DNA of 64,000 bases from Mangrovimonas xylaniphaga (GTDB lineage Bacteria > Bacteroidota > Bacteroidia > Flavobacteriales > Flavobacteriaceae): positions 62,001 to 126,000 of the forward strand of contig NZ_LBIP01000019.1 in the NCBI RefSeq assembly GCF_001280435.1, read 5' to 3'. The translations under genes were made by a program, and so were the position numbers. Below are positions 28,449-47,009 of this stretch, piece by piece. Under the pieces are notes generated by a model, which did no database searches, was not told the origin of the DNA, and saw only the letters and a program-made list of their open reading frames with translations. Every line of letters begins with the position of its first letter. Position 1 is the stretch's first letter.

Positions 28449-28532
28449 GCTGAAGTGGTGGAATTGGTAGACACGTTGGACTTAAAATCCAATGAACATT
28501 AGTTCGTGCGGGTTCAAGTCCCGCCTTCAGTA
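28449..28532 (+). tRNA. tRNA-Leu (anticodon UAA), island integration target
   Basis: A class II tRNA with acceptor GCTGAAG/CTTCAGT (first pair G-T), anticodon stem TTGGA with loop CTTAAAA (anticodon TAA), a variable arm GAACATTAGTTC and T arm GCGGG/CCCGC. CCA is not encoded. Its last 14 nt belong to the 72-bp repeat duplicated at 45884, so the present 3' end was probably supplied or rebuilt by the integrated element. Confidence 0.96.
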
Positions 28533-28590
28533 CTGCAAAAATCCGTAACAGGCTTGTTTATCAAGAAGTTGCGGATTTTTTGTTTTTATA
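28519..28590 (+). repeat. left attachment-site repeat (tRNA-Leu 3' end plus terminator)
   Basis: A 72-bp sequence repeated at 45884-45955 in the same orientation, with differences only at 28551 (G/T) and 28560 (A/G). The first 32 bp (28519-28550) are identical and hold the tRNA 3' end, so strand exchange most likely happened there. Confidence 0.95.
28537..28580 (+). terminator. tRNA-Leu operon terminator (left, island-derived copy)
   Basis: Stem AAAAATCCG-T-AAC / GTT-G-CGGATTTTT (13 bp with one wobble) topped by a small CTTG/CAAG hairpin, ending in a T run. The same structure occurs in the right repeat. Confidence 0.85.
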
Positions 28591-28814: not shown

Positions 28815-29015
28815 ATGACAAAAGAAGAAATTTTAGAAATTGAAGGAGTGTGGACTGCGGAAGAAGTTGCTGGGATAAAAAGTTGGATAAAGGAAGAAGG
28901 AGAAGATGATATCCATGAGCAACATGCTCTAGCAGAAAAACAAGCTAAAACAATTTTGGAAATTGCACATGTAGATTTAAATGAGTTGAAAGTTCCGTTT
29001 ACTTTCAATTTGTAG
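28815..29015 (+). CDS. small acidic protein of unknown function, partner of the cysteine-protease-like gene
   Basis: A 66-aa acidic protein, mostly predicted helical (KEEILEIEGVWTAEEVAGIK, QHALAEKQAKTILEIAHVDL), with no signal peptide or membrane helix. I do not recognise a family. It ends 4 nt before the 512-aa predicted cysteine protease, so the two are surely co-translated. Size, acidity and order are like an inhibitor/antitoxin, ribosomally made substrate or adaptor, but nothing in the sequence decides between these. It is the first gene inside the island next to the tRNA. Confidence 0.75.
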   Translation: MTKEEILEIEGVWTAEEVAGIKSWIKEEGEDDIHEQHALAEKQAKTILEIAHVDLNELKVPFTFNL

Positions 29016-29019
29016 CTAT

Positions 29020-30558
29020 ATGGCATATAAAGTTCTAGAGTATTCTGCGGAAAATCTTAAACGCTGTTTTTCTGATCAGGCAGAGGCACATGATGAAATA
29101 ATTTTTAGTAAGAGGCATTTAGCGTGCTTTGAAGATTATTTTGCACACATTCAAATAGCTACGATTATAGTCGAAGAAGACTATGTTAATCGAGACTTTT
29201 TGGAAGATTATTCTTCTTATTATGTGAGAAGTTTCAAAGAGTACAAGAGAGATTGTATTAGACTTCACTTTTTTAAAAATGAGATAACTTCTGATGATTT
29301 TTCCAATATTCTAAAGGGAGGAGAAGGTTCTGAAATTCTTACGGAGCAGTTGCAGCTCAATTATAGAGGCTTTATGGTTTTAAAGCCATTGCCTACTACC
29401 ATAATAGGGAAAACATGTATATCTACTTATGATCATGATGGTAGAAGATATTTTCCTTCAATTCGCACTTATAAGGCTAATTTATATGGAATACCTTTAG
29501 AGGTTAAATCTCTAGCTTATCAAGAGCAAGATAGTATTGTTGCAGCATGTGCTTCAAGTTCAATATGGAGTGCATTTCAAAGGACAGCAGTCCTTTTTCA
29601 ACATTCATTGCCATCCCCCGTAGAGATCACAAATTGGGCAACAAAATATTTTCCATTTGCAAACAGACATTTTCCTAATAAGGGGTTGACTGGTGAACAA
29701 ATGGCAATTGCTATCAGGGAGGTCGGACTTGAGCCTTTCCTATACAATGTTAGGGATTATGATAGGTTAAAAGCCTCAACCTATGCTTATTTAAAAGGAG
29801 GTATTCCAGTTGTCTTAGGGTTTGATTTATGGGATTTGAGTGATGATGTACCTAGGCAAAGAGGTAAGCATGCGGTAACAATCACGGGTTATAGTGTTGG
29901 CGGTGATGTTACAAATAGTTATGATGTAGTGGAAGAACTTCAGCTAACATCTTCGCGGATAGATAAACTATATGTTCATGACGATCAGATAGGACCATTC
30001 GCAAGAATGGTTTTTGGAGGTTCGAAAATTATGACTAGAAGAGGAGAGTGTCTAGGATTAGATACTTCTTGGCTTGATGGAAATAATCACGAGGATAATA
30101 TTAAAGCTACACCTGATATCCTAATCATACCGCTTTATCATAAAATTAGAATCCCTTTTGAAACAGTTTTAGCTTCTGTAAACCTTTTTAACTCACTTTT
30201 TATCTTAGTAGCAGAAAAGGTTCCAAATTTTAATTTGTTTGAATGGGACATTTATTTGTCAGATATTAGAGACTTCAAAAATGATATACTGAGTGATGAT
30301 AAATTATGTCCAGATGAAAAAGAGTTTATTTTGACGGCGAAATATCCTAAATATTTATGGAGAGCTTCGGGTAAAATTGGAGATGAATGTAAGTTGGAGT
30401 TTATTATAGATGCAACTGATATTGAGCAAGGATCTTCATTTCTTTCAAGAATCTCTTATGACAAAATTGTTGAAAAACAATATAAAGTTCTTTTGCACGG
30501 TTTCGATTCAAATATAGTTTCGGATTTGACTGTTAAAGAGATGATTGAATCTTTTTAA
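29020..30558 (+). CDS. predicted papain/C39-like cysteine protease domain protein (unrecognised family)
   Basis: A 512-aa soluble protein. Residues ~160-345 look like a papain-like cysteine protease or transpeptidase fold: Gln168/Gln170 and Cys177 in YQEQDSIVAACASSSIWSAF, His284 in RGKHAVTITGYS, and an Asp/His-rich strand YVHDDQIGPFARM (~318-330) that could supply the third residue. The pattern resembles C39-like peptidases (Cys followed by a helix, HAVTITGY strand). The ~160-residue N-terminal and ~170-residue C-terminal regions are not recognised. There is no signal peptide, so it acts in the cytoplasm. It lies in an operon with the 66-aa acidic protein and is convergent (7-bp gap) with the type I RM operon. 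Role in defence is inferred from location only. Confidence 0.7.
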   Translation: MAYKVLEYSAENLKRCFSDQAEAHDEIIFSKRHLACFEDYFAHIQIATIIVEEDYVNRDFLEDYSSYYVRSFKEYKRDCIRLHFFKNEITSDDFSNILKGGEGSEILTEQLQLNYRGFMVLKPLPTTIIGKTCISTYDHDGRRYFPSIRTYKANLYGIPLEVKSLAYQEQDSIVAACASSSIWSAFQRTAVLFQHSLPSPVEITNWATKYFPFANRHFPNKGLTGEQMAIAIREVGLEPFLYNVRDYDRLKASTYAYLKGGIPVVLGFDLWDLSDDVPRQRGKHAVTITGYSVGGDVTNSYDVVEELQLTSSRIDKLYVHDDQIGPFARMVFGGSKIMTRRGECLGLDTSWLDGNNHEDNIKATPDILIIPLYHKIRIPFETVLASVNLFNSLFILVAEKVPNFNLFEWDIYLSDIRDFKNDILSDDKLCPDEKEFILTAKYPKYLWRASGKIGDECKLEFIIDATDIEQGSSFLSRISYDKIVEKQYKVLLHGFDSNIVSDLTVKEMIESF

Positions 30559-34443: not shown

Positions 34444-35529
34444 CTATTGTTTGAATATCACGGTACCATCAATAAAAAATTCAATTGCTTTGGAGGATTC
34501 ATTAAAAAATTCAAGTTCCGAATATTTGGAGTATTCTTGGCTGGCTAATATTTTAACAATATCATCACTAATCCCTACAGATGTTTGTCCAAAAAAGAAT
34601 CTACTAAAGTATTCTTCGGACAATAAATCCCACGGAGAAGGAATGTTTTTTATTATTGAGGAAAAAGGGCGGCCTAGCCTCCAGAATTGTTTTTCTCCTA
34701 TTTCTACTAAGTTGAAATAGTGTTCTTTAAAAACAATTCTTTCTCCCTTTACGAGTCTTTCTGCATTTGAGAAGTCACCTATCATATAAAACCAAGCAGC
34801 ATAATGAAACCTCATTGGGGAGGTGTCTAATTTCACTTCATCTGTTTCATTAATAGGGTCTACAAAATGTAATGTTGAATTTTCCGAATGCCTTTCATCT
34901 GACCATTCAGGGCAAAATCCTAAGGATTTTATAACATTAAAACCGCTACTATTTGTACTTATAATATTTGCACCACTTGAACATTGTTTTAACGCCTTGG
35001 ATAACTTACTTTTTACTGTCTTCGAAGAGGTTGTTTCTTTTCCTTTTGATTCTGCTAGGCAAATTTGGTTAGACAAATTTTTGGCTTGGCAAACAAAATC
35101 AGGAGTTGATGATTTAGAGGGGATTGAGATCCCTTTATTGTCGCAAAAAAACTCGAAATCATTTATAAAAGGGTAGCCATTATCTTGTAGAAATAAATAT
35201 ACTAGCCCTTGGGAAATCTCTCCAATTCTACTGGTTCTAGAAAAGTCTCTTAAACTATTGATCCTATTGGAGTCAATTCTTGCGTTTGGGGTTGATGTAT
35301 GCATTAAATTTTCAAGGCTCAATAGGGTTGCAATGTGGTCATACCAAGCACTTCGTTTCGTAAGATTTTGAGAGCATATTGTCATTGCAATTCCATGGGC
35401 CAATCTCCAGCTAGTGAACTGAAAATTGGAATGCTTCTGCTTAACAGGGCTTAAATTCTTGTGGGGTGTTGTGACAGATGTATTTGTATATTCTTCTGTT
35501 ACTACTTCTCGATTATTTATGAATAACAT
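34444..35529 (-). CDS. unrecognised PD-(D/E)xK nuclease-like protein inside the hsd operon
   Basis: A 361-aa soluble protein between hsdS and hsdR. The central part has the hallmarks of a restriction-type nuclease core: Glu104 in a helix (RIGEISQGLVYLF), Pro143-Asp144 in SSTPDFVCQAK, and Glu160-x-Lys162 in ICLAESKGKE, then a helix rich in Lys (VKSKLSKALKQC). N- and C-terminal regions (1-95, 200-361) are not recognised. It is 26 bp after hsdS and 4 bp before hsdR, so it is co-expressed with the type I system, but it is not an HsdM, S or R component. Possibly a second effector nuclease or a modifier of HsdR. Confidence 0.75.
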   Translation of the reverse strand: MLFINNREVVTEEYTNTSVTTPHKNLSPVKQKHSNFQFTSWRLAHGIAMTICSQNLTKRSAWYDHIATLLSLENLMHTSTPNARIDSNRINSLRDFSRTSRIGEISQGLVYLFLQDNGYPFINDFEFFCDNKGISIPSKSSTPDFVCQAKNLSNQICLAESKGKETTSSKTVKSKLSKALKQCSSGANIISTNSSGFNVIKSLGFCPEWSDERHSENSTLHFVDPINETDEVKLDTSPMRFHYAAWFYMIGDFSNAERLVKGERIVFKEHYFNLVEIGEKQFWRLGRPFSSIIKNIPSPWDLLSEEYFSRFFFGQTSVGISDDIVKILASQEYSKYSELEFFNESSKAIEFFIDGTVIFKQ

Positions 35530-38865: not shown

Positions 38866-40059
38866 TTATTTGATAACACCAAAGTTTTTTATATATTCTT
38901 TCAATAATGGGTCTACAAATGCGTATATACCTCGATTTACTTTGTATATGATGTCGTTTTCTACAAGATTAGATAAGTTTGTACTGTATTCATTTTGAGG
39001 GTATCCTATTTTCTTGGAGATAAAGTCATTTTGGACATTCTCCGATTCACATTGTGCCATTGCTTCGAGAATAAGTTGATATTTACCTGATCCTGCTCCT
39101 TTTAATTTAGTTTCTAGACTATTCTTCCGTACTTCAGTCACCACTTTTTTCTTAGCTTTTTCAAAATCTTCTTCATCTAAATGATCATCATCTGAAACAG
39201 TTAGAATTTCGCTTCCTATTAAATGGGTTGGCTCAGGGAACCCTGATGAAAAAGCTGCACATTTATCTAGAACTTTGGCATCATATGTTGCGCCTACTTT
39301 CATGAATCCATCCTTTAGGATATCTTTAAGCTCTTCGTCATCAAATCTGTTTATAGGAATGTCCTTGAGAGTTCTTAAGATGGAAGCATGTTCCGTCCCC
39401 ATCTTTTGTACGGCTCCTTTTATGCCTGCGCAGAAAAATATAACTTTTTTTAAGCCTTCACGAGACATTTTTTCAGTAGAAAGCTTTAGGAAGGTTGCAA
39501 TGCCTATTGAGGGGTCTAAACGGTCTATTTCGTCTATGAAAATTATAAGTCCGTCCTTTCCTTTTTTTATAAGCTCCTTATAAACGGTTTCAATTTCCTT
39601 TACAAATTGGTTGACTAAATTTAGTATGGATTTTTCTTTTTCCTCTTTTTTTGAAAGCTTAACAAAGCCTGCAATATCAATTTCTAGGTTCCACCCTTTT
39701 ACATGCTTTTTTAGAGAACTTTGAAGTTCATCTAGTATAGCTTCAATTAGGTTTTCAAGACTTTGTTCTGAAACGCAATCAACCCAAGCCGTATGGAAGT
39801 TAAATTTTGTTTCTTCAGAAGGAAAATTAAATTTATTTGCTAGAGCCTGATTACCTGCAGCGAGTAGGGAGCTTTGAAATAGTAAAGAACTCTTACCAAT
39901 ACCTCTCTCCCCAGTAATGATTGAGTGACTAGGATTTGAGTTTGAAGTTTGGAAAAAAGCGTCAATTATTTCATCGACTTTTGTTTTTCTTCCTTCGAAC
40001 CGATTGGGGTCATCTACAGGTCTGTTTGGAAAAAATGGATCTACAAATCTTTTTTTCAT
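38866..40059 (-). CDS. Orc1/Cdc6-like AAA ATPase
   Basis: A 397-aa protein. An N-terminal stretch (RFVDPFFPNRPVDDPNRFEGR) leads into an AAA core with Walker A ITGERGIGKSSLLF (~48-61), Walker B GLIIFIDEIDRLD (~170-182) and a sensor region (KVIFFCAGIKG). The C-terminal ~80 residues look like a winged helix (FISKKIGYPQNEYSTNLSNLV). Such stand-alone ATPases occur in defence islands and in mobile elements, where they may sense or bind DNA. No effector domain is fused, and the flanking genes are not tightly coupled. Function unknown. Confidence 0.75.
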   Translation of the reverse strand: MKKRFVDPFFPNRPVDDPNRFEGRKTKVDEIIDAFFQTSNSNPSHSIITGERGIGKSSLLFQSSLLAAGNQALANKFNFPSEETKFNFHTAWVDCVSEQSLENLIEAILDELQSSLKKHVKGWNLEIDIAGFVKLSKKEEKEKSILNLVNQFVKEIETVYKELIKKGKDGLIIFIDEIDRLDPSIGIATFLKLSTEKMSREGLKKVIFFCAGIKGAVQKMGTEHASILRTLKDIPINRFDDEELKDILKDGFMKVGATYDAKVLDKCAAFSSGFPEPTHLIGSEILTVSDDDHLDEEDFEKAKKKVVTEVRKNSLETKLKGAGSGKYQLILEAMAQCESENVQNDFISKKIGYPQNEYSTNLSNLVENDIIYKVNRGIYAFVDPLLKEYIKNFGVIK

Positions 40060-44433: not shown

Positions 44434-45705
44434 TTAGAAGTATTTAGTTAATTCAAGTGCAAGGTCTTTATTGCTTTTTCCAATATATTGTAAGAACATT
44501 TTTTCGGTGCTATGTCCAGTTACGTATATCAGGTAAGAGGTAGGTATTTGACCATAAAAATTTGTGGCAAAGGAACGTCTACCTATGTGGGAGGATACTA
44601 GCTCGTATTTTTTGTAGTCCTTTTCAATTTTTCTGTATATCTTACTTTTGGGAAAGGTTTCTTGTTTTTTGCTACCCCTAACTATATTGTCGATTTTTGC
44701 GAGTTCACAGACATCTTTAATGTAGTCATTGTATTTTTGATCTGAGATAGGTCTTGGGAATTTTCCGTTCCTTTTTTCAAGGATATCAAGAACCTTTTTG
44801 TGTAACGGTACGGTCATTGTCTTGTTGGTTTTTTTTTGCGTGAATTCGATCAGAGGCTTTCCATTTTCAACTCTAATCATGTCTTTATTGAACCTCATGA
44901 AGTCAGAAACTCTTTGCCCAGTGTAGCAACTAATGACCAGCCAATCTCTCGCGTTTAAAATGCTTTCGGTTAACTCTTTTGGATCAATATCATCTGCTTT
45001 TTCAAGGTTTTCTATTTGTTCTATCTCTTCAAAGGTGAGGTAGATATTTTCAACCTTTTTGAATTTTGGTTTTAACTTTTCTAGTTGGTAACTTGTTTCT
45101 ATACCATTATACTTAGCGTGGTTGCACACTGTCTTAATGGTTCTGACGGCTTTTGCTATCGTGTTTTTAGAATATGACTTTGATAGACAGTAATTTTCAA
45201 AATCTTTTTGGAACAATAGGTCTATATCTTTTATTAGTAACTTTCGACCTAATGTGTTCTCGTAGCGCTCTAGTAAGTTCTGGACGGTTTTGTACTTCTT
45301 TATTGTGCTACTCGTTATTTCATTTTTTTTAAATTCAATGAAGTCCTTATAATATGCTAATAGTTGATCGAGTTTTCTATTTGGTTCTAATGAGGGTTTG
45401 TAATAGTCGTCCATTACGTCTTGTAGCCATTCTTTTGAAATATTGTCAGGGTGAGTTCTATTAAAGGCTTCTAAGATGTGGTTTTCTATCTTGTTTAACT
45501 CCTGATTCACCTCAGTTTGTTTATTGGCTATGTCAATATCCTTTATCCGCTTTAGTGGATGTTTTTTAATCCAGTATTCCTTTGAAATTAAATACTTCGT
45601 TTTACCTCCTACGGTAAAGTCTTTTTTGTCGTGACGATAAAGCAATCTTAAGGATAAGTTGGCATCCCTTTTTCGGGATCTGTATAAAAAGTTAACTGAA
45701 GCCAT
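44434..45705 (-). CDS. tyrosine-type site-specific integrase of the island
   Basis: A 423-aa recombinase. An N-terminal arm-binding region (SVNFLYRSRKRDANLSLRL) and a SAM-like core-binding domain (LLAYYKDFIEF ... LYERY-like) precede the catalytic domain. The active-site residues are visible: Arg in CYTGQRVSDFM, His-x-x-Arg in SSHIGRRSFATN, His in VTGHSTEKM and Tyr in MFLQYIGKSN near the C-terminus. It lies 179 bp inside the right repeat, the end far from the tRNA. It should catalyse integration at the tRNA-Leu 3' end. Confidence 0.96.
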   Translation of the reverse strand: MASVNFLYRSRKRDANLSLRLLYRHDKKDFTVGGKTKYLISKEYWIKKHPLKRIKDIDIANKQTEVNQELNKIENHILEAFNRTHPDNISKEWLQDVMDDYYKPSLEPNRKLDQLLAYYKDFIEFKKNEITSSTIKKYKTVQNLLERYENTLGRKLLIKDIDLLFQKDFENYCLSKSYSKNTIAKAVRTIKTVCNHAKYNGIETSYQLEKLKPKFKKVENIYLTFEEIEQIENLEKADDIDPKELTESILNARDWLVISCYTGQRVSDFMRFNKDMIRVENGKPLIEFTQKKTNKTMTVPLHKKVLDILEKRNGKFPRPISDQKYNDYIKDVCELAKIDNIVRGSKKQETFPKSKIYRKIEKDYKKYELVSSHIGRRSFATNFYGQIPTSYLIYVTGHSTEKMFLQYIGKSNKDLALELTKYF

Positions 45706-45883: not shown

Positions 45884-45955
45884 TCCCGCCTTCAGTACTG
45901 CAAAAATCCGTAACATGCTTGTTTGTCAAGAAGTTGCGGATTTTTTGTTTTTATA
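45884..45955 (+). repeat. right attachment-site repeat
   Basis: A 72-bp copy of the tRNA-Leu 3' end plus terminator (two differences from 28519-28590). By the usual logic of tRNA-targeted integration this is the displaced chromosomal end, so the sequence right of it (45956 onward) was once directly downstream of tRNA-Leu. Confidence 0.95.
45902..45945 (+). terminator. displaced tRNA-Leu terminator (right copy)
   Basis: Same 13-bp stem with an inner CTTG/CAAG hairpin as at 28537. The two base differences (45916, 45925) both fall in unpaired positions. Confidence 0.75.
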
Positions 45956-46034
45956 TGATTTTCTTCAAATTACTTGAGTAATCTGTTTATTTCCTTTTTG
46001 TTGGGAAATGTTTATTTCAATAGAGCTATTTTTC

Positions 46035-46610
46035 CTAACGTTTTTTAGGCGGCATGGTACCAAAAACAATGTCCCAAAGTGGCGAGCTTACCCCATAGGC
46101 TTTATCATCGAATTTGTGATGGTGTAAGTGATGGTGTTTCCATAGATACCGAAACCAATTTTTTGGAGGCCTTCGAGCATGGATGATGTAGTGGATATAT
46201 AAGTATGCAGCGTATCCAAAAAAGAATCCGGGCCAAAATAAATAGGTGTATTCTCCCATAATTACATAAAATAGGGCAAAGAAGAGTGCTCCAAGAAGTA
46301 TGGCAAGAGGAATGGGCATGGCCAGTAAGCCTTCGTCCTTAGGGTAGGCATGATGTACGCCATGAACCGTGTATTGCCAATTTGCTTCATTTTTATAATC
46401 TTCGCCGGAGTGGTATAAAAACCGATGGGCCAGGTATTCAATAAGGGTAAACAACAGGAGCCCTAAAATCAAGAGTAAAAGTTTGTTTGCAAAAAATAAG
46501 TCAATCTTAAAAAAGCTATAGATTAAAACGGCAAGGGATAATAGCAGGTAAACGCCCACTGCTAACATAGAGTTGGTTTTTACAACTTTGTAAGTCCTAT
46601 TTTCATTCAT
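46035..46610 (-). CDS. fatty-acid hydroxylase / sterol-desaturase superfamily membrane protein
   Basis: A 191-aa membrane protein with about four helices. The di-iron histidine clusters are EYLAHRFLYH, HGVHHAYPKD and KHHHLHHHKF. Related to FA2H-type enzymes that hydroxylate the acyl chain of lipids at C2; in Flavobacteriaceae these may act on sphingolipid-like or amino lipids. It is the first gene right of the island, transcribed towards it. The exact substrate is unknown. Confidence 0.88.
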   Translation of the reverse strand: MNENRTYKVVKTNSMLAVGVYLLLSLAVLIYSFFKIDLFFANKLLLLILGLLLFTLIEYLAHRFLYHSGEDYKNEANWQYTVHGVHHAYPKDEGLLAMPIPLAILLGALFFALFYVIMGEYTYLFWPGFFFGYAAYLYIHYIIHARRPPKNWFRYLWKHHHLHHHKFDDKAYGVSSPLWDIVFGTMPPKKR

Positions 46611-47009
46611 GCTACGACATTTTATTTCTTAAAAATAAAACACAAGGGAAGTGGCAAACCTTTGGCTCATTCCCTTTATGTCTAAATGCAAGGCGCATTA
46701 TTTTGGGGCTAGGTGCTATGGTTTAGCATACAATTTACAAAATTCTTGGATAAGGAGCTTGTTGAGACTTCTTTTGAATGTAAGTGTTCCTTTGAAGAGC
46801 CGTAAATTTTCAATTTTGAGAAATGGTCTCATTTATTGTTTCTTCAATAGAATGTTTGGAAAGGAATAGGAATGCAATTGGGTTAATTGGAGCTTGCTTG
46901 TTGAGGATGTAGTAAATTATAACCGTAATTTTTTTCTACCTTTCACAGAAACAATTTATTTTTGAGAATATTTCAAAAACCTAGAAACTTTAGGATTCAG
47001 TTTAAATTT
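46611..47009. other. 399-bp divergent intergenic region
   Basis: Separates the hydroxylase (minus) and the PUL regulator (plus) and should hold both promoters. TATTTTTG at 46957-46964 fits a -7 element for the regulator, but no good -33 element is seen. A 72-codon open frame (46651-46869) starting at GTG has no coding character and is not called. Confidence 0.6.

What the first reader, a model, noticed from the sequence alone, without database searches (positions are those of the whole stretch)
28815..30558. Two-gene module: 66-aa acidic protein plus papain/C39-like cysteine protease at the defence end of the island
The pair is separated by 4 nt. The large protein shows Gln168/Cys177/His284 and an Asp-rich strand, a plausible cysteine-protease triad, between two unrecognised regions, and has no signal peptide. 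The partner is a small acidic protein that could be inhibitor, substrate or sensor. A cytoplasmic protease kept with a small partner next to a type I RM system in a mobile island is a good candidate for an undescribed anti-phage or toxin-antitoxin-like system.
Basis: partly seen in the sequence, partly recalled or inferred. Interest (0 to 1): 0.78.

Follow-up and report, generated by a model that had tools for sequence, protein, structure and literature searches.

The report
Papain-like protease with conserved small partner
A two-gene unit on a mobile island makes a protein-cutting enzyme of the papain fold and a roughly 60-residue companion; the same pair turns up, rarely and often among anti-virus genes, in unrelated bacteria, so it is a good but untested candidate for an undescribed bacterial defence module.

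Summary
The pair is real. The 512-aa protein belongs to a widespread but rare, unnamed family: 35 loci in Bacteroidota, Planctomycetota, Pseudomonadota and plasmids, about 1.5-2.5% of genomes surveyed. A model of the window protein (pTM 0.84) has a papain/C39 core (staphopain Z 13.8; PCAT1 C39 peptidase Z 12.6, rmsd 2.1). Cys177 and His284 are confirmed. The better oxyanion Gln is Gln170, not Gln168, and the acid is Asp321/322. The small partner is real and is the new part. A 50-90-aa ORF adjoins the gene in 31 of 35 loci, and its C-terminal tail (V-[S/D]-x-E-x-L-x-R-P-x-[T/S]-I/L) is conserved while its body is not. In one deep clade the partner lies downstream of the protease instead, so it is not a leader ORF. 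Its acidity is peculiar to this window. Neighbours include Argonaute, type I/IIG restriction, a DRT-type reverse transcriptase, a PD-T4-6 kinase and ThiF/multiubiquitin genes. PADLOC 2023 and NCBIfam have no model; Pfam gives only a weak C39_2 hit. Best reading: a defence-associated protease controlled through the tail of its partner. That mechanism is inferred: the model of the joined pair was not confident, and no toxicity or phage data exist.

The parts
28519..28590 (+). left attachment repeat at the 3' end of tRNA-Leu; island boundary
   Evidence: 72-bp direct repeat with 45884-45955, 2 mismatches; single copy (empty site) in same-genus genome G001; tRNA-Leu at 28449-28533
28815..29015 (+). 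small partner gene, 66 aa
   Evidence: counterpart next to the protease gene in 31 of 35 loci; codon-position bias in relatives
28968..29012 (+). conserved C-terminal tail of the partner (HVDLNELKVPFTFNL)
   Evidence: leave-one-out motif test, 0.07% of control ORFs score as high
29020..30558 (+). papain/C39-fold cysteine protease-like protein, 512 aa
   Evidence: model pTM 0.84; staphopain Z 13.8, PCAT1 Z 12.6; family alignment
29527..29529 (+). codon of Gln170, presumed oxyanion residue
   Evidence: invariant in A1, nearly invariant in A2
29548..29550 (+). codon of Cys177, presumed nucleophile
   Evidence: invariant in A1, nearly invariant in A2
29869..29871 (+). codon of His284, presumed catalytic base
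   Evidence: invariant in A1 and A2
29980..29985 (+). codons of Asp321-Asp322, presumed third member of the triad
   Evidence: Asp322 invariant, Asp321 nearly invariant in A2
45884..45955 (+). right attachment repeat of the island
   Evidence: integrase gene 44434-45705 next to it

Best explanation
The two genes form one functional unit. The large protein is a cytosolic cysteine protease: a central papain/C39 domain (about residues 139-375) between an N-terminal alpha/beta domain and a C-terminal domain. The small, mostly helical partner binds the large protein through its conserved C-terminal tail and keeps it inactive, as a plug or docking inhibitor. Infection, or another insult sensed through the partner's body or the protease's flanking domains, relieves this, and the freed protease cleaves host or phage proteins and stops the infection. 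Shown here: the fold, the invariant catalytic set, the near-constant small partner, tail conservation, gene-order swap, rarity, mobility and frequent defence neighbours. Inferred: binding, inhibition, trigger, targets and the anti-phage role.
For: Papain/C39 fold of the window protein and invariant Gln170, Asp171, Cys177, Trp183, His284, Asp321/322. A partner ORF is adjacent in 31 of 35 loci: upstream in 26, and downstream, starting between 7 nt before and 2 nt after the end of the large gene, in 5 (L038, L042-L045). The swapped order argues for interacting proteins, not a leader ORF. Tail motif by leave-one-out: 13 of 25 partners beat 99% of 2,776 control ORFs. In L003/L007 and L002/L006/L009 the last 15 residues keep 11-12 identities while the body is 17-30% identical and the protease 57-65%, as expected if the tail is what the protease recognises. 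Neighbours: class I pAgo with REase partner and PDC-S39 (L003), SNF2/HKD helicase, IIG restriction and PDC-S06 genes (L004), PD-T4-6-like kinase (L009), Ppl-like ATPase (L012), DRT class III-A RT (L038), PDC-M71B plus HsdR-like gene (L045), IIG RM (L059), ThiF/multiubiquitin/DUF6527 genes (L013, L014, L041, L057, L058), type I RM in the window. Sporadic: 3 of 149 relatives besides the window's own genome excluded or not as listed, and 10 of 395, 6 of 369 and 6 of 294 genomes, these three counts including the centre genome.
Against: The read-through model of partner plus protease gave the partner block-mean pLDDT of only about 30-73, with the tail among the lowest, so no binding site is supported. 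No defence enrichment was tested against random loci; the neighbours scanned were picked by hand. Three of the 31 partners (L012, L059, L065) are supported only by position, and L039, L060 and L066 have no recognisable partner. No activity or toxicity data exist.
Confidence: 0.38

Rival explanations
1. The partner is the protease's substrate. The conserved C-terminal tail is the recognition or cleavage site and the variable body is released as a small effector or signal, a mirror image of C39 peptidases that cut a conserved leader from a variable peptide.
For: Closest core geometry is the C39 peptidase of PCAT1 (rmsd 2.1 over 133 residues); conserved tail with a fast-diverging body; small size and adjacency.
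Against: No conserved Gly-Gly site, no ABC transporter domain in the large protein and no secretion gene conserved beside it. In the closest pair L004/L005 the body is conserved (84%) better than the protease (69%).
Confidence: 0.25
2. The unit is a plain addiction (toxin-antitoxin) pair that stabilises islands and plasmids, without a specific anti-phage role.
For: Found on plasmids and on an att-flanked island; two close-packed genes with a small partner.
Against: Its neighbours are often defence systems. The partner has no convincing DNA-binding domain match in Pfam or NCBIfam.
Confidence: 0.12
3. The protease belongs to bacterial ubiquitin-like pathways and removes or matures ubiquitin-like modifiers.
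For: ThiF genes, most with multiubiquitin and/or DUF6527 genes, lie within a few kb in 5 of 35 loci on three separate branches. Papain-fold Ub/Ubl proteases (UfSP2, ZUP1) are among the fold matches, Z about 10.5.
Against: About 30 loci, the window included, show no such close neighbour; some of these operons carry their own JAB peptidase (L058).
Confidence: 0.1
4. The papain-like domain is not a protease but an acyl- or amide-transferring enzyme (as in BtrH or phytochelatin synthase) that modifies the partner or a small molecule.
For: Phytochelatin synthase is a fold match (Z 12.0) and one member has a weak BtrH_N hit (E 0.029).
Against: Stronger and more numerous matches to proteases; C39_2 is the most frequent Pfam hit, though in only 5 of 35 members.
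Confidence: 0.1

Closest known systems
C39/C39-like peptidases (Pfam PF13529; ComA/PCAT1 peptidase domains)
   Same: Papain-like core with Q-C-H-D set; L013 scores 24.7 bits against a cut-off of 24; fold match Z about 12; small protein encoded nearby
   Different: No ABC transporter, no double-glycine leader, two extra conserved domains, conserved tail at the C-terminus of the partner; the window protein itself is below the Pfam cut-off (16.4 bits)
Staphopain-staphostatin pair
   Same: Papain-fold protease (Z 13.8) whose gene has a small partner gene beside it; as a working model, a small protein occupying the active site
   Different: Staphopain is secreted and staphostatin is a folded beta-barrel (own knowledge); here the pair lacks a signal peptide and the partner is short, helical and mostly unstructured in the model
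Toxin-immunity pairs with papain-like toxins (e.g. PDB 9l5u, 8ssm)
   Same: Papain-like domain paired with a small neutralising protein (fold matches Z about 11)
   Different: No delivery domain and no secretion-linked genes seen in the loci examined; the partner has a conserved tail instead of a variable folded immunity domain
Bacterial gasdermin/caspase-type protease defence modules
   Same: Working analogy only: intracellular protease plus a small partner among defence genes
   Different: No gasdermin-like partner recognised and the protease matches papain-like, not caspase, folds

Membership tests
Papain-like (clan CA) cysteine peptidases | papain-like fold | tested here: met
   Model pTM 0.84; staphopain Z 13.8 over 172 residues, many papain-like chains with Z above 10
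Papain-like (clan CA) cysteine peptidases | conserved Cys-His-Asp/Asn set with upstream Gln | tested here: met
   Q170, C177, H284, D321/D322 invariant in 15 sequences; H284 and D322 invariant, the rest at least 90% in 35; distances in the model could not be measured
Papain-like (clan CA) cysteine peptidases | proteolytic activity | not testable with these tools
   needs enzyme assay
C39 leader-peptidase/ABC transporters | fusion to ABC transporter and double-glycine substrate leaders | tested here: not met
   Pfam finds no transporter domain in the large proteins; partners share no Gly-Gly motif
Peptidase_C39_2 (PF13529) | score above Pfam cut-off | tested here: inconclusive
   L013 24.7 bits versus cut-off 24; window protein 16.4; 5 of 35 members hit at E up to 0.05
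Known anti-phage defence systems (PADLOC-DB 2023) | match of a component to a PADLOC model | tested here: not met
   No match for either window protein or any of the 35 large proteins
Anti-phage defence in general | protection against phage | not testable with these tools
   only context evidence
Toxin-antitoxin pair | toxicity neutralised by the partner | not testable with these tools
   adjacency only
Ubiquitin-like pathway peptidase | constant association with E1/Ubl genes | tested here: not met
   5 of 35 loci

The most novel reading that the evidence does not exclude
A previously undescribed two-gene bacterial immune module in which a papain/C39-fold protease is controlled by a small protein that is recognised through its conserved C-terminal tail, with a divergent body that acts as trigger sensor or released effector.
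Probability: 0.35. Interest if true: 0.82.

Novelty: new variant of a known kind. Interest (0 to 1): 0.64.

Why it matters
Bacterial immune proteases known so far are, as far as I know, mostly caspase-, trypsin-, Lon- or subtilase-like. A papain/C39-fold protease with a dedicated small partner, shared by Bacteroidota, Planctomycetota and Pseudomonadota, would add a new kind of effector and a compact control device. The conserved tail and catalytic Cys give directly testable mutants.

Tried and rejected
Leader ORF or regulatory upstream ORF: rejected as the main reading, because in L038 and L042-L045 the partner follows the protease gene. Acidic partner as DNA or substrate mimic: rejected as a family feature, because charge runs from -10 to +7. 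Phage structural or lysis protein: no match in 50,697 phage records, one weak PHROG hit of 35, only 3 relatives in IMG/VR. Modelling the pair: read-through fusion of L008 with 17 rows; partner not confident, so inconclusive. The first alignment of the fusion misplaced the window's partner row, which was dropped. Further viral-contig scans with single sequences, and a DNA pattern for YVHDD..GP.A, gave no new relatives. Profile search of solved structures by sequence: nothing significant. Viral fold library: no match at E of 0.001 or better. Literature: ten searches for papain/C39-like proteases in phage defence or with ThiF/multiubiquitin found no description of this family; most subscription papers and most preprints were not searched. 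Known folds of the N- and C-terminal domains were not tested separately. The flank gene 46035-46610 gave no match in four related genomes, so the empty site was shown by DNA comparison instead.

Full report
What is there. Two ORFs on the + strand, 28815-29015 (66 aa) and 29020-30558 (512 aa), lie 4 nt apart. They are the first genes inside a 17.4-kb island that starts at the 3' end of a tRNA-Leu. The island is flanked by a 72-bp direct repeat with two mismatches (28519-28590 and 45884-45955) and carries an integrase (44434-45705). A genome of the same genus has one copy of the repeat, after which its sequence is collinear with the window from 46925 on (85.9% over 15.4 kb); the other same-genus genome also has a single copy in the stretch examined. 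The site is therefore empty in the first genome; about 1 kb beyond the right repeat, with the gene 46035-46610, is absent there too. Type I restriction genes follow on the other strand.

The large protein is a real, unnamed family. tblastn-confirmed relatives were found in Planctomycetota, Pseudomonas and Herbaspirillum genomes, in plasmids of Hymenobacter, Shewanella, Pseudomonas and Mesorhizobium, in three viral contigs and in genome surveys. After removing duplicates 35 loci remain, the window included. The family is rare: 4 of 149 relatives as tallied (the tally may count the window's own genome, and one of the four is a weak, broken match), 10 of 395 genomes of the window's phylum, and 6 of 369 and 6 of 294 others, each of these three counts including the genome the search was centred on. 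The tree mixes phyla, consistent with horizontal transfer. Pfam gives only C39_2, below the cut-off for the window protein, above it for L013 (24.7 bits versus 24), and at E up to 0.05 in 5 of 35 members. NCBIfam and PADLOC have nothing.

Fold and active site. The AlphaFold2 model of the window protein (13 aligned sequences) has mean pLDDT 81 and pTM 0.84. Residues 139-375 match papain-like enzymes: staphopain C Z 13.8 (rmsd 3.6, 172 residues), PCAT1 C39 peptidase Z 12.6 (rmsd 2.1, 133 residues). Gln170, Asp171, Cys177, Trp183, His284, Asp321 and Asp322 are invariant in 15 sequences, and invariant or at least 90% conserved in 35. Coordinates of the model are not exposed by the tools, so distances were not measured. 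Conserved residues outside the core (E52, Y55, R81, F84-F85, Y115, W447, D464) show that the flanking domains matter too.

The small partner. Scanning both sides of the gene, a 50-90-aa ORF adjoins it upstream in 26 loci and downstream, starting between 7 nt before and 2 nt after the end of the large gene, in five others (L038, L042-L045), where the partners are 65-66 aa and end in SQIxAxxVILTx or a close variant. Three of the upstream cases (L012, L059, L065) rest on position alone. L010 (truncated large gene), L039, L060 and L066 show none. The upstream partners share a C-terminal tail, roughly V-[S/D]-x-E-x-L-x-R-P-x-[T/S]-I/L. In a leave-one-out test with close relatives withheld, 13 of 25 tails beat at least 99% of 2,776 control ORFs from the same loci (0.25 expected), and the window's tail is at 0.07%. 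The motif window was seeded from tails chosen by eye, so this test is somewhat optimistic. Closely related partners differ mainly at third codon positions. In L003/L007 and L002/L006/L009 the tail keeps 11-12 of 15 residues while the body is 17-30% and the protease 57-65% identical; in the closest pair L004/L005 the body is conserved too. Acidity is not a family trait.

Surroundings. Where neighbours were examined, many are defence genes: a class I prokaryotic Argonaute with its REase partner and a PDC-S39 candidate (L003), SNF2/HKD helicase with IIG-type restriction and PDC-S06 genes (L004), a PD-T4-6-like kinase (L009), a HamB-like helicase (L011), a Ppl-like ATPase (L012), a class III-A defence reverse transcriptase (L038), PDC-M71B next to an HsdR-like ORF (L045) and IIG restriction (L059). 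ThiF, multiubiquitin and DUF6527/DUF6791 genes are close in L013, L014, L041, L057 and L058. Others have transposases, recombinases or housekeeping genes. No random-locus control was run, so 'defence-associated' is a strong impression, not a measured enrichment.

How it most likely works. The near-constant partner, the swap in gene order and the conserved tail argue that the two proteins interact and that the tail is the contact. The most likely reading is a regulated cysteine protease held in check by its partner and released on infection. The chief rival is that the partner is the substrate. A read-through fusion of L008 (partner, 16-residue linker, protease) was folded to decide between them, but the partner's residues were at low confidence, so the question stays open.

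Status. The family and the partner are not described in the libraries and papers I could search. In the evidence field the survey count '3 of 149' means the three matches other than the window's own genome listed.

Noticed in passing
window 34444-35529 (-): 361-aa ORF between the hsdS-like and hsdR-like genes with no Pfam or PADLOC match; a motif like DFVCQAKN...CLAESKG hints at a nuclease-type domain.
   Followed up: no
window 38866-40059 (-): AAA_16 ATPase with a C-terminal segment weakly like AbiEi antitoxin, at the other side of the RM operon.
   Followed up: partly
L012:7914-10073, L013:7836-10016, L020:7890-9998: These large proteins carry an extra C-terminal domain with a GHPxLTGxKxARIAGE...SGRYS motif that is absent from the window protein.
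   Followed up: no
L043, 60-aa ORF ending 127 nt upstream of the large gene: Short Pro/Tyr-rich ORF (GYQP repeats) besides the usual downstream partner.
   Followed up: no
L010:5899-6987: Truncated large gene in Herbaspirillum lacking the catalytic Cys region, no partner found: probably a decayed copy.
   Followed up: partly
L014, L041: Partners of another tail type (IKAAQ..RKFA[LW]R) next to convergent ThiF genes (multiubiquitin gene seen in L014): a possible subtype.
   Followed up: partly
window 45956-46925: Region beyond the right att repeat, with a 191-aa membrane hydroxylase-like gene (46035-46610), is also missing from same-genus genome G001.
   Followed up: partly
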